The notes under the pieces are model-generated. The model was not told the origin of the DNA, searched no databases, and was given only the letters and a program-made list of their open reading frames with translations. A program made the position numbers and the translations under genes. 7,047 bases of DNA from NCBI GenBank assembly GCA_030682755.1, contig JAUXNR010000769.1, positions 1 to 7,047 of the forward strand, written 5' to 3'. Each line of letters opens with the position of its first letter. Positions within the stretch are counted from its first letter, which is position 1. The DNA is from Flavobacterium sp. GTDB lineage: Bacteria > Bacteroidota > Bacteroidia > Flavobacteriales > Flavobacteriaceae. Shown here piece by piece: positions 1 to 2,970 of this stretch.

Positions 1-131
1 ATGTTCGGATGATGCACGAGCAATTGAAGATTTTCATTTTTAAATCCTGTCCACCAGTTGGGTGGTTCAATTCGATTGACTTGAGCTATTGCAGAAGTCG
101 ATATTAGTAAAAAAATAAGTAGCTTTTTCAT
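1..131 (-). CDS. SusA-like GH13 neopullulanase/cyclomaltodextrinase, N-terminus only
   Basis: Only the first 43 codons are present and the gene continues past the left edge. The product starts MKKLLIFLLISTSAIA-Q, a short type I signal peptide with likely cleavage after residue 16 and no lipobox cysteine, so an exported, probably periplasmic, protein is expected. Mature residues 21-43 read IEPPNWWTGFKNENLQLLVH, which resembles the start of the N-terminal domain of Bacteroidota SusA-type GH13 enzymes (cyclomaltodextrinase/neopullulanase N domain, with its PPxWWxGxKNxxLQL signature). Members hydrolyse malto-oligosaccharides, cyclodextrins or pullulan. It is the last visible gene of the minus-strand operon, fitting a role in supplying maltose to the transporter and phosphorylase. 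Its start codon (129-131) is only 2 bases from the end of an inverted repeat bounding the upstream GxxExxY cassette. The catalytic domain is not visible, so exact specificity is unknown. Confidence 0.85.
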   Translation of the reverse strand, partial: MKKLLIFLLISTSAIAQVNRIEPPNWWTGFKNENLQLLVHHPN

Positions 132-133
132 TT

Positions 134-165
134 TTTAAACCATTAAGAGATTAAGATTCATTAAG
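134..165 (+). repeat. Left terminal inverted repeat of the GxxExxY cassette
   Basis: This 32-bp arm matches the reverse complement of 623-654 at 29 of 32 positions; the mismatches are at 148, 149 and 156. It starts TTTAAACC and holds three NATTAAG units beginning at 141, 149 and 159. The inner edge lies 2 bases from the GxxExxY stop codon (168-170) and the outer edge 2 bases from the GH13 start codon. Confidence 0.85.
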
Positions 166-167
166 AG

Positions 168-587
168 TTATTCATCATCTAACATTTGAAAATATTCATT
201 TACAAATGGTTTTGTTGATTTCGTAATATTTGTTGTATTAAAATTTATCAGTAAGCCTTGTGGTCTTTTTAATAAATTCATATAAGTTAAAATTTTAGCT
301 TCGTGAATAGGATGAAAGCTGTCCACTGTTTTTAATTCAACAACTACGCAGTCATTTACTAGAAGATCGAGTCTTAATTGACTTTCCAATTCTAACTCAT
401 CATATTCAATCTTAATAATTAGTTGTTGCTTGACATCATATCCATTTTTTTCAAGTTCATATTTCAAACATTCTTCATAGACACTCTCTAACAAACCCGG
501 TCCTAATCTCTTGTGAACTTTTATGGCATAGCCAACTATTTCATAAGATAATTGAGTAACTTCTTTTTTTGTTAATCGAACTTTCAT
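168..587 (-). CDS. GxxExxY family protein (PD-(D/E)XK nuclease-like)
   Basis: This small protein is 139 aa from the ATG at 585-587. An in-frame ATG at 603-605 would add six residues (MPFLYI) but lies inside the flanking repeat, so the inner start is preferred. Residues below are counted from the outer ATG. The family signature is clear: GPGLLESVY gives G37, E40 and Y43. RLDLLV at 78-83 followed by VVVELK at 87-92 supplies D80 and E90-x-K92, the arrangement of a PD-(D/E)XK nuclease core. The family is widespread and often multicopy in Bacteroidota; I know of no established biochemical role. It is in the same orientation as the sugar genes but has no apparent link to maltose metabolism. The coding region nearly fills the space between two 32-bp inverted repeats, suggesting an inserted cassette rather than an operon member. 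No promoter of its own is evident, so it may be read from operon transcription. Confidence 0.9.
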   Translation of the reverse strand: MKVRLTKKEVTQLSYEIVGYAIKVHKRLGPGLLESVYEECLKYELEKNGYDVKQQLIIKIEYDELELESQLRLDLLVNDCVVVELKTVDSFHPIHEAKILTYMNLLKRPQGLLINFNTTNITKSTKPFVNEYFQMLDDE

Positions 588-600
588 AATATATAAAAAA

Positions 601-641
601 GGCATTAAGAAGATTAAGAAAACTTAATGAACCTTAATGCC
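601..641. repeat. Nested inverted repeat upstream of GxxExxY gene
   Basis: GGCATTAAG at 601-609 is perfectly complementary to CTTAATGCC at 633-641. Inside it ATTAAG (613-618) pairs with CTTAAT (623-628) across an AAAA loop. The two stems could stack as one hairpin with a small internal loop. The right half overlaps the right cassette repeat, so this structure and the long-range cassette stem would compete. No T-run follows on the transcribed strand, so it is not a convincing terminator. Confidence 0.75.
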
Positions 642-654
642 TTAATGGTTTAAA
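623..654 (-). repeat. Right terminal inverted repeat of the GxxExxY cassette
   Basis: Read on the minus strand from 654, this arm starts TTTAAACC and carries NATTAAG units with the same 8- and 10-base spacing as the left arm. It matches that arm at 29 of 32 positions. It ends 12 bases before the GH65 stop codon (667-669), so together with 134-165 the cassette takes up nearly all of the space between the GH65 and GH13 genes. Confidence 0.85.
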
Positions 655-666
655 TTAATTGTTAAA

Positions 667-2970
667 CTAAACCGTTACTAAACTATTCGGTTCTACTAAA
701 ATTTCTTTTCCTTTTACAAAAACAGTAATTGGTTTATTTCCTTCCAATGAAAATTTCGTTTCATTAGATTGCACAGAAACTTTCAAAATTTGATTTCTGA
801 AATTAATTTTAAACGAATATCCTTTCCATTGTGTTGGGATTTTTGGTTCAAAATGTAAGGTTTCGTTTTTAACACGCATTCCACCAAAACCTTCAACAAT
901 ACTCATCCAAGTTCCGGCCATCGACGTGATATGTAAACCTTCGTGCACTTCTTTGTTATAATCATCTAAATCCAAACGGGAAGTTCGAAGATAGAACGTA
1001 TATGCTTGTTCCATTCTGTCCAAAACGGCAGCTTGAATCGAGTGGACACAAGGCGAAAGCGAACTTTCGTGAACGGTAAATGGTTCATAAAAATCAAAAT
1101 GTTTCTCTAATTGTTCTTTCGTGAAATGATCTTCAAAAAAGTAGAAACCTTGCAATGTATCGGCTTGTTTGATGTAAGGTGAACGTAAAATTCTATCCCA
1201 AGACCATTTTTGGTTAATGGGTCGCTGACTTTTATCTAAATCAGAAACTTTTACCAATTCTTTATCCAAAAATCCATCTTGTTGCAAATAGACATCGTGT
1301 TCTTCCGAATAGGGAAAATACATATTATCTGCAACTTCTTTCCAATGGTTAATTTCAGCCACAGAAAGTTTTACTTTATTTAAAATTCGAGTATAATCCG
1401 ACGAATATTCTTTTTCAATTTTATTGATTTGTTTAATCGTATAATCAATACACCATTTTGCAATATAATTAGTGTAAAAATTATTGTTTACGTTATTTTC
1501 ATATTCATTCGGACCCGTTACACCTAAAATCACAAACTGATTACGGTAAGTAGAGTAGGTAGCTCTTTGGTGCCAAAAACGAGCAATTCCGATTAAAACT
1601 TCCAGACCTTTTTCAGGAATATAGCTGTAATCTCCGGTGAATCGGTGATAATTGAAAATAGCAAAAGCAATCGCTCCATTTCTATGAATTTCTTCAAACG
1701 TAATTTCCCATTCGTTGTGACATTCTTCGCCGTTCATGGTCACCATCGGATATAAAGCAGCTCCGTTTTTGAAACCTAGTTTTGCAGCATTTTCAATCGC
1801 TTTTTCTAAATGATTGTAACGATAAGTCAATAGATTTCTGGCCACTTGCTGATCTTTGGTTGCCATATAAAAAGGAATGCAATACGCTTCGGTATCCCAA
1901 TAAGTTGATCCACCATATTTTTCTCCGGTAAATCCTTTCGGACCAATATTTAAACGAGAATCTTTCCCTAAATAGGTTTGATTTAATTGAAAAATATTGA
2001 AACGAATGCCTTGTTGAGCTTTCACATCGCCATCAATCGTAATATCGCTCATTTCCCAAATTTTTGCCCAAGCTTTGATTTGGTCTTCTAATAATTGGTT
2101 GTAACCGATGGATATTGCTTCAGATAAAACTTTTTTAGCAGCTTCTTCTGGGTTTTCATGATTCATCGAAACGGTGTAACCACCTATTTTTTGAATAGAC
2201 GTCGATTGATTTTTGGTAACTGAAACTTCATACGAAAATTCAATTTTATCATTTGAAGATGCAACGTTGGACGGAGAAGCATTCACATTTTTCCCATCAA
2301 CCAAAATCGTATTTTGCATAAAAGTGGTCGCTGTGAAATGCGTTTTAAATGTTCTTGCAGTTACAAAAGCTTCGTTTCCATTGTTTTTTACATTTAATGG
2401 TTCCCAAAATTTTTCTTCCCAGTTGGCATCTTCGTTGTGAACACCGGCATCAATGTAAGGTTTGAAAACAATCTTCGCATCCTGATTTAAAGCGGTAATT
2501 TGATAGTTAATTACACCCACTTCATCCAAATCTAATGAAAGAAAACGACGCACTTGTACTTCAATTTCAGTTCCGTTTTGAAGTTTTGCCATGAAAGATC
2601 GATGATACCAACCTTCTTTCATATTCAGTTCTCTACGGAAGTTTTTCACCCTTGCACAATTGGCTAAATCTAAATTTTCACCGTTGATTTCGATGTTAAT
2701 TCCAATCCAATTTGGAGCATTAAGTACTTTGGCAAAATATTCGGGATAACCGTTTTTCCACCAACCCACTTTTGTTTTATCGGGATAATAAATTCCGGCA
2801 ATATAACTTCCTTGGAAGGTTTTTCCGGAATAATATTCTTCAAAATTTGCACGTTGTCCCATCGCACCGTTTCCGATGCTGAACAAACTTTCAGAAGACT
2901 TAACCAGGTCTTGTTCAAATCCTTCTTCAATAATCGACCAGTTATCTGGTATGATATAATCTTGGTTCAT
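667..2970 (-). CDS. GH65 family phosphorylase, probable maltose phosphorylase
   Basis: The 767-aa product is a full-length GH65 enzyme, close to the roughly 750 aa usual for maltose phosphorylases. The expected layout is an N-terminal beta-sandwich (about 10-265), a helical linker, an (alpha/alpha)6 barrel (about 320-690) and a small C-terminal beta domain. Conserved segments are YGGSTYWDTEAY (352-363), MNGEECHNEWEITFEEIHRNGA (412-433) and VTGPNEYENN (484-493). E489 in the last matches the general acid of the family. KQAD (601-604), HESSLSP (634-640) and GLHITSMAGTW (678-688) match the region that binds phosphate. The family inverts configuration, so maltose plus phosphate would give glucose and beta-glucose 1-phosphate in the cytoplasm. 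The beta-phosphoglucomutase gene directly upstream uses exactly that product. Trehalose, kojibiose or nigerose phosphorylase are alternatives that sequence alone does not exclude; the SusA/SusC-type neighbours favour maltose. Confidence 0.93.
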   Translation of the reverse strand: MNQDYIIPDNWSIIEEGFEQDLVKSSESLFSIGNGAMGQRANFEEYYSGKTFQGSYIAGIYYPDKTKVGWWKNGYPEYFAKVLNAPNWIGINIEINGENLDLANCARVKNFRRELNMKEGWYHRSFMAKLQNGTEIEVQVRRFLSLDLDEVGVINYQITALNQDAKIVFKPYIDAGVHNEDANWEEKFWEPLNVKNNGNEAFVTARTFKTHFTATTFMQNTILVDGKNVNASPSNVASSNDKIEFSYEVSVTKNQSTSIQKIGGYTVSMNHENPEEAAKKVLSEAISIGYNQLLEDQIKAWAKIWEMSDITIDGDVKAQQGIRFNIFQLNQTYLGKDSRLNIGPKGFTGEKYGGSTYWDTEAYCIPFYMATKDQQVARNLLTYRYNHLEKAIENAAKLGFKNGAALYPMVTMNGEECHNEWEITFEEIHRNGAIAFAIFNYHRFTGDYSYIPEKGLEVLIGIARFWHQRATYSTYRNQFVILGVTGPNEYENNVNNNFYTNYIAKWCIDYTIKQINKIEKEYSSDYTRILNKVKLSVAEINHWKEVADNMYFPYSEEHDVYLQQDGFLDKELVKVSDLDKSQRPINQKWSWDRILRSPYIKQADTLQGFYFFEDHFTKEQLEKHFDFYEPFTVHESSLSPCVHSIQAAVLDRMEQAYTFYLRTSRLDLDDYNKEVHEGLHITSMAGTWMSIVEGFGGMRVKNETLHFEPKIPTQWKGYSFKINFRNQILKVSVQSNETKFSLEGNKPITVFVKGKEILVEPNSLVTV

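What the first reader, a model, noticed from the sequence alone, without database searches (positions are those of the whole stretch)
134..654. GxxExxY gene in matched inverted repeats: candidate mobile or selfish cassette
The only gene in the operon without a metabolic role is enclosed by 32-bp inverted repeats matching at 29 of 32 positions. Each arm has three NATTAAG units at the same 8- and 10-base spacing. The 521-bp unit consists almost entirely of the nuclease-like coding region and the repeats, and nearly fills the space between two genes that work together. GxxExxY genes are often multicopy in Bacteroidota and their function is unknown. A nuclease-like protein with its own terminal repeats and no transposase would be a new kind of small mobile unit, loosely comparable to REP/RAYT elements. 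No target-site duplication is visible.
Basis: partly seen in the sequence, partly recalled or inferred. Interest (0 to 1): 0.75.

Follow-up and report, generated by a model that had tools for sequence, protein, structure and literature searches.

The report
Nuclease gene in mobile word-hairpin
A small gene predicted to encode a DNA-cutting enzyme sits inside a hairpin made of short repeated words; the words are inherited together with the gene in many bacteria, and gene-free hairpins of the same words lie scattered between genes, so the pair is likely a tiny mobile element that would move without any known transposase.

Summary
In detail: 134-165 and 623-654 match at 29 of 32 positions with the stated word spacing. 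It is not a one-off. In the genus, 116 of 140 distinct GxxExxY genes are enclosed by inverted arms, against 31 of 752 other ORFs and 9 of 140 mismatched partners. Arms differ between genes but track the protein tree: six word classes need six changes, shuffled mean 41. Arms of the window's word, many of them gene-free hairpins, are scattered in its genome and occur in 29 of 61 genus genomes. Two hairpins are missing, flanks intact, in a close relative. ATTAAG-class genes lie in four contexts. Arms surround 38 of 64 relatives not named Flavobacterium. The protein keeps an invariant D-E-K triad and a Cas4-like predicted fold. I read it as a transposase-less, REPtron-like unit: nuclease gene plus cognate hairpin, gene-free hairpins being likely non-autonomous derivatives. 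Movement by the nuclease is inferred, not shown. Against it: no clear target duplication, and two hairpin-rich genomes without a matching gene among those classed.

The parts
168..587 (-). GxxExxY gene, PD-(D/E)XK nuclease fold (139 aa from the ATG at 585-587; the 145-aa ORF starts at 605 inside the hairpin)
134..165 (-). distal return arm a' downstream of the gene: three words CATTAAG/GATTAAG/CATTAAG read on the + strand
623..654 (-). upstream arm a, 29 of 32 complementary to the distal arm
601..618 (-). proximal return arm a'; with 623-654 it forms a local hairpin (-18.2 kcal/mol as RNA for 595-662), and it resembles part of the distal arm as a direct repeat
619..622 (-). loop of the upstream hairpin
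667..2970 (-). upstream neighbour: GH65 glycoside hydrolase/phosphorylase; match at E 1e-100 or better in 206 of 249 genus genomes searched
1..132 (-). downstream neighbour: start of a secreted GH13 cyclomaltodextrinase-type protein (cut by the contig end)
   Evidence: alignment to L223; Pfam of the L223 counterpart

Best explanation
The unit is a GxxExxY gene wrapped in a hairpin built of its own lineage-specific repeated word, and it is likely a small mobile element in which the predicted nuclease would recognise that hairpin in DNA and drive its copying into spacers between genes, the many gene-free hairpins being its likely non-autonomous offspring. Shown: inverted arms around most GxxExxY genes examined; co-inheritance of arm word and protein; dispersed gene-free hairpins of the same word; two hairpins missing in a close relative; several host sites; an invariant D-E-K triad, and purifying selection between the window and G182. 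Inferred: that the nuclease binds and cuts its own hairpin; that cutting leads to copying, for example through a hairpin or cruciform in single-stranded DNA at replication; that recombination between the two a' direct repeats flanking the gene removes the gene and leaves a short palindrome.
For: Arms: 116 of 140 genes against 31 of 752 control ORFs. Co-inheritance: 88 labelled proteins, 6 changes for 6 word classes, least possible 5, shuffled mean 41.1, 0 of 200 as low; without labels, Mantel r 0.32 in 116 genes, 0 of 999 permutations as high, and 0.24 for pairs under 70% identity; between those 116 and 38 units not named Flavobacterium r is 0.20 against a permutation maximum of 0.15. The 8 genomes with an ATTAAG-class gene hold 20, 0, 60, 19, 9, 11, 14, 17 exact ATTAAG arms; the 53 without hold at most 22, 9, 8, 8, 7, then 4 or fewer, p 5e-5 (counts; relatedness of genomes not corrected). 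Missing hairpins: sufC-sufD has an ATTAAG hairpin in G000, G182 and G065 but one base between stop and start in G127, G164, G064 and G138; the C388 hairpin of G000 and G182 is absent in G127. ATTAAG-class genes in four contexts: GH65-GH13 (7 of 13), hemA-hemC (3), after GH13 (2), GDPD-HI0933-like (1). Same-site variants with and without gene in the same word class. The variable dinucleotide is equal in both arms in 13 of 23 hairpins, shuffled mean 5.1. dN/dS 0.05 against G182. No Y1 transposase match in G000, G004, G029, G030.
Against: No movement was observed and no clear target-site duplication is visible at the two empty sites. G029 (22 exact arms) and G040 (9) have no ATTAAG-class gene among those I classed (in G029 two of eight genes remain unclassed), and G001 has the gene but no exact arm. 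0 of 30 sampled arm sites have a GxxExxY gene within 1 kb and only 13 of 30 have a close inverted partner at my threshold. 28 of 75 loci that could be scored show no arms at the threshold. Mantel correlations are modest. Fold matches are weak by Foldseek (best E 0.009). Purifying selection would also fit a host function; over all classes the median dN/dS was 0.46 in 101 pairs, many probably saturated. Four-helix-bundle genes sit in the same kind of arms, so arms are not peculiar to this nuclease.
Confidence: 0.5

Rival explanations
1. The word-hairpins are independent dispersed repeats moved by something else, and GxxExxY genes are cargo that settles in hairpin loops.
For: Most arm sites looked at have no gene (0 of 30 with GxxExxY within 1 kb; own-genome sites); G029 and G040 have many arms and no matching gene among those classed; an unrelated gene family (PF05635 four-helix bundle) sits in the same kind of arms, 24 of 34.
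Against: Cargo landing in whatever hairpins a genome holds would not give one word per protein clade across genomes and genera. No Y1 transposase match in four arm-bearing genomes, and 0 of 28 Y1 loci carry the ATTAAG arm.
Confidence: 0.22
2. The hairpin acts in RNA: the unit is an intervening-sequence-like insert whose stem is processed or autoregulates the gene, and it is tolerated in operon spacers for that reason; any mobility is incidental.
For: Outer arms pair around the gene in the predicted RNA fold of the whole unit, and the upstream hairpin alone scores -18.2 kcal/mol; units and hairpins sit between stop and start codons inside operons; the 23S rRNA IVS of Coxiella is a 428-nt element with a 28-bp terminal stem, an S23 ORF and heptamer repeats upstream of it, cut out by RNase III (PMC4990558, passages).
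Against: Does not by itself explain gene-free hairpins scattered with the same word, nor one word per protein clade.
Confidence: 0.18
3. An ordinary vertically inherited gene with terminator-like hairpins on both sides.
For: Many GH65-GH13 spacers without the gene hold other, mostly terminator-like sequences (8 of 24, by eye).
Against: Presence and class change between close relatives at one site (G000 and G182 with, G127 without); word arms in 116 of 140 genes but inverted arms in 31 of 752 control ORFs; four different gene contexts.
Confidence: 0.07

Closest known systems
REPtron: REP/REPIN palindromes with TnpA_REP (RAYT)
   Same: Small gene linked to cognate palindromes; gene-free palindromes dispersed between genes.
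   Different: TnpA_REP is a HUH-superfamily enzyme and REPs carry GTAG (PMC8266576, passages); here a PD-(D/E)XK protein and arms of tandem 7-base words, the window's without GTAG or CGTC.
23S rRNA intervening sequence (IVS) with S23p ORF
   Same: Short ORF inside a stem formed by terminal inverted repeats; tandem heptamers next to the start codon in Coxiella (PMC4990558, passages).
   Different: Sits in rRNA helices and encodes a four-helix bundle; this unit sits between protein genes and encodes a nuclease-like protein.
Bacterial MITEs
   Same: Short, non-coding, inverted-repeat elements between genes.
   Different: MITEs resemble degenerate insertion sequences (PMC3733652, passages). I saw no clear target duplication; besides Y1 transposases I did not search for an insertion sequence with these ends.
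Cas4 / Hjc-type PD-(D/E)XK nucleases
   Different: No significant sequence match: 4ic1 E 0.42 in the PDB search, PADLOC Cas4 E 0.003 over part of the protein.

Membership tests
GxxExxY / PDDEXK_3 proteins | Profile score above the curated cut-off | tested here: met
   TIGR04256 136.6 (35); PF13366 129.5 (22)
GxxExxY / PDDEXK_3 proteins | GxxExxY motif and D...ExK triad | tested here: met
   G37, E40, Y43, D80, E90, K92 invariant in 50 proteins
REP/RAYT (REPtron) | HUH/Y1 transposase linked to the repeat | tested here: not met
   Protein matches PF13366 only; no PF01797 match in G000; 0 of 28 Y1 loci of other genomes carry the arm
REP/RAYT (REPtron) | GTAG (or CGTC) tag at the palindrome | tested here: not met
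   Neither in the window's two arms, either strand
REP/RAYT (REPtron) | Dispersed palindromes between genes in the same genome | tested here: met
23S rRNA IVS | Insertion in a 23S rRNA helix | tested here: not met
   Unit lies between GH65 and GH13 genes
23S rRNA IVS | S23p four-helix-bundle ORF | tested here: not met
   Single Pfam match is PF13366; predicted alpha/beta fold
23S rRNA IVS | Excision of the insert from RNA by RNase III | not testable with these tools
   needs RNA work
MITE | Terminal inverted repeats, no coding sequence (gene-free form) | tested here: met
MITE | Target-site duplication | tested here: inconclusive
   none clear at two empty sites in AT-rich sequence

The most novel reading that the evidence does not exclude
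GxxExxY nucleases and their word-hairpins are a widespread class of transposase-less mobile elements of Bacteria and Archaea: the nuclease reads 7-base words phased about one helical turn apart in its own hairpin and copies the hairpin, with or without the gene, into gene spacers. The four-helix-bundle units, the 23S rRNA intervening sequences among them, are the sister type with another core protein.
Probability: 0.35. Interest if true: 0.92.

Novelty: new variant of a known kind. Interest (0 to 1): 0.78.

Why it matters
Two papers in the searched library contain the name; I saw one passage of one of them, which only names the domain beside a reverse transcriptase gene (PMC8934634), and nothing of the other beyond the listing. 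A class-specific partner sequence would give the family a testable substrate. It could also explain many of the intergenic hairpins in Flavobacterium, which shape spacers inside operons such as suf and the maltose operon, and it suggests that 23S rRNA intervening sequences could belong to a larger family of gene-in-hairpin elements.

Tried and rejected
RAYT as the driver: PF01797 matched in 8 of 12 genomes but not in G000, G004, G029 or G030, and 0 of 28 Y1 loci carry the ATTAAG arm. Defence gene: only partial Cas4 matches in PADLOC, none in PHROGs. Solved relative by sequence: nothing significant. A strict link of hairpin to gene: rejected, since 0 of 30 sampled arm sites have the gene near. 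First word-class regexes left 26 of 117 genes without a class and 1 without flanks; many of those 26 showed other words by eye, so classes were widened and then checked without labels. Dropped before counts: ORFs under 105 aa, identical proteins and genes with short flanks (the number before dropping was not printed); 25 of 113 proteins from the tree, 24 with arm score under 16 and 1 without a class; 6 of 30 GH65 loci without GH13 next to them; 5 of 80 loci (2 short flanks, 3 without a complete ORF match). GxxExxY genes beyond the listing were not fetched, and one search kept the best 80 of 569 relatives. Absence from print rests only; one listed paper tabulates REP-like sequences for two Flavobacterium genomes (PMC12306157, one passage), which I could not compare with these words.

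Full report
OBSERVATION. The two arms, 134-165 and 623-654, match at 29 of 32 positions, and their three words lie 8 and 10 bases apart as stated. The gene between them is GxxExxY / PDDEXK_3. Arm 623-654 returns on itself at 601-618 through a 4-base loop, so the plan is a, a', gene, a'. The two a' copies are imperfect direct repeats that flank the gene. The longest ORF starts at 605 inside the return arm; the start at 587 fits the homologues.

NOT A ONE-OFF. In 61 genus genomes PF13366 matches in 50, with up to 9 genes in one. I fetched flanks of most genes in that capped listing; a few more came with GH65 loci of other genus genomes. Genes beyond the listing were not fetched. Of 140 distinct genes with usable flanks, 116 have an inverted-arm score of 16 or more; of 752 other ORFs in the fetched loci, 31; with the downstream flank of another GxxExxY gene, 9 of 140. 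The arms are not one repeat. They are tandem short words such as CATTAAG, CATATAAG, CACATAG, CGCAAAG, CGCGGAT or CGAATT; arm self-similarity peaks at shifts of 8 to 10 bases and again near 21 (116 arms).

ARM AND PROTEIN TRAVEL TOGETHER. On a tree of 88 labelled proteins the six word classes need 6 changes (least possible 5; shuffled mean 41.1; 0 of 200 shuffles as low), and the ATTAAG class is one side of a branch with support 96/96. The labels are my own regular expressions, so I repeated the test without them: arm k-mer similarity against protein identity gives r 0.32 in 116 genes (0 of 999 permutations as high), and 0.24 for pairs below 70% identity. Between those 116 and 38 units not named Flavobacterium r is 0.20, above all 999 permutations. 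Chryseobacterium and Chlorobiota proteins nearest to the window's class also carry TTAAG words, though at least two distant units matched their nearest protein's word poorly.

GENE-FREE HAIRPINS. The window's word occurs as short palindromes or single arms on many other contigs of its own genome, none of them the contigs of its three other PF13366 matches. A 26-base pattern of one arm is found in 29 of 61 genus genomes and never as the reversed control. In 30 such sites in 29 genomes, no GxxExxY gene lies within 1 kb, and 13 of 30 have an inverted partner within 70 bases at a score of 14, against 11 of 300 random places. The variable dinucleotide agrees between the arms of a hairpin in 13 of 23 cases (shuffled mean 5.1, highest 12 in 5000 shuffles), so pairing is kept. 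The 8 genomes with an ATTAAG-class gene carry more such arms (p 5e-5, relatedness not corrected), but G029 and G040 have 22 and 9 without such a gene among those classed, and G001 has the gene and no exact arm.

CHANGES BETWEEN RELATIVES. G127 and G182 have GH65 proteins 96% identical to the window's. In sufC-sufD, G000, G182 and G065 carry an ATTAAG hairpin; G127, G064, G164 and G138 have one base between stop and start; G048 carries a hairpin of another word. At the C388 site the hairpin of G000 and G182 is absent in G127. A third site (C398) is continuous in G127 with no flank match in G182, and a fourth (C93) is continuous in both, so not every hairpin differs. At GH65-GH13, of 24 loci with both genes, 7 have the ATTAAG unit with gene, 2 a CGCAAAG unit with a GxxExxY only 42-43% identical to the window's, 1 (G071) an ATTAAG hairpin without gene, 3 ATATAAG and 3 CGCAAAG-type hairpins without gene (one of these short), and 8 other sequences, mostly terminator-like (sorted by eye, some printed in part). 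G127 is one of those without the gene. The 13 ATTAAG-class genes lie in four contexts: GH65-GH13 (7), hemA-hemC (3), behind GH13 (2), GDPD-HI0933-like (1). No clear target duplication is visible.

HOW IT MAY WORK. Shown: word and protein co-inherit; gene-free copies exist; hairpins differ between relatives; the triad is intact. Inferred: the nuclease reads the phased words in its hairpin, cuts it, and the hairpin is copied into spacers; recombination between the two a' repeats sheds the gene and leaves a short palindrome. This is how a REPtron would look with a PD-(D/E)XK enzyme in place of the HUH enzyme. It is not a REPtron by membership: no Y1 protein in this genome, no GTAG tag in the window's arms.

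KIN. PF05635 four-helix-bundle genes, the protein family of 23S rRNA intervening sequences, are present in 60 of 61 genomes and also sit in inverted arms in 24 of 34 cases examined, with a co-inheritance signal of r 0.34 in 24 genes, 0 of 999 permutations as high, highest 0.31. The Coxiella intervening sequence has terminal inverted repeats and tandem heptamers before its S23 ORF (PMC4990558, passages). Of 75 scorable loci among the best 80 of a capped scan, 47 have arms at the same threshold: 9 of 11 named Flavobacterium and 38 of 64 others, among them Ignavibacteria, Anaerolineae, Pyrinomonadaceae and a Methanosarcinales bin; in 6 of 75 at least one of 20 composition shuffles reached the threshold. 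Contigs of MAGs may be misbinned.

PRINT. The library holds two papers with the word GxxExxY, and in the listings of my other searches I saw none whose title or abstract start described these units; most subscription journals are not in it. Passages only were seen of PMC8934634, PMC12306157, PMC4990558, PMC8266576, PMC5524665 and PMC3733652.

Noticed in passing
L084-L113; sufB-sufC spacers in L305, L307, L308: Four-helix-bundle (PF05635) genes sit in the same kind of inverted word arms; in three relatives an ORF that reads like one of this family (by eye) lies between sufB and sufC.
   Followed up: partly
sufB-sufC spacer in L300-L302 and L304: In several relatives this spacer holds small ORFs that look like a toxin-antitoxin pair (by eye, no profile search).
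   Followed up: no
window 601-605: The longest reading of the GxxExxY gene starts inside the hairpin's return arm, so the hairpin could control its translation.
   Followed up: partly
sufC-sufD spacers in L295, L296, L306: Further hairpin families with other words (CAGTTGTCTGTTATCGG, CAGTCTCAGTCACAG) and no gene, each possibly another unit of the same kind.
   Followed up: no
PMC4990558, IVS of Coxiella burnetii (passages): Tandem heptamers before the S23 ORF resemble the word arms seen here.
   Followed up: partly
PMC5524665, table of phage elements (passages): In both compared Flavobacterium columnare genomes a four-helix-bundle gene is listed between a guanylate kinase and a nicotinate mononucleotide adenylyltransferase gene, another spacer of the same sort.
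   Followed up: no
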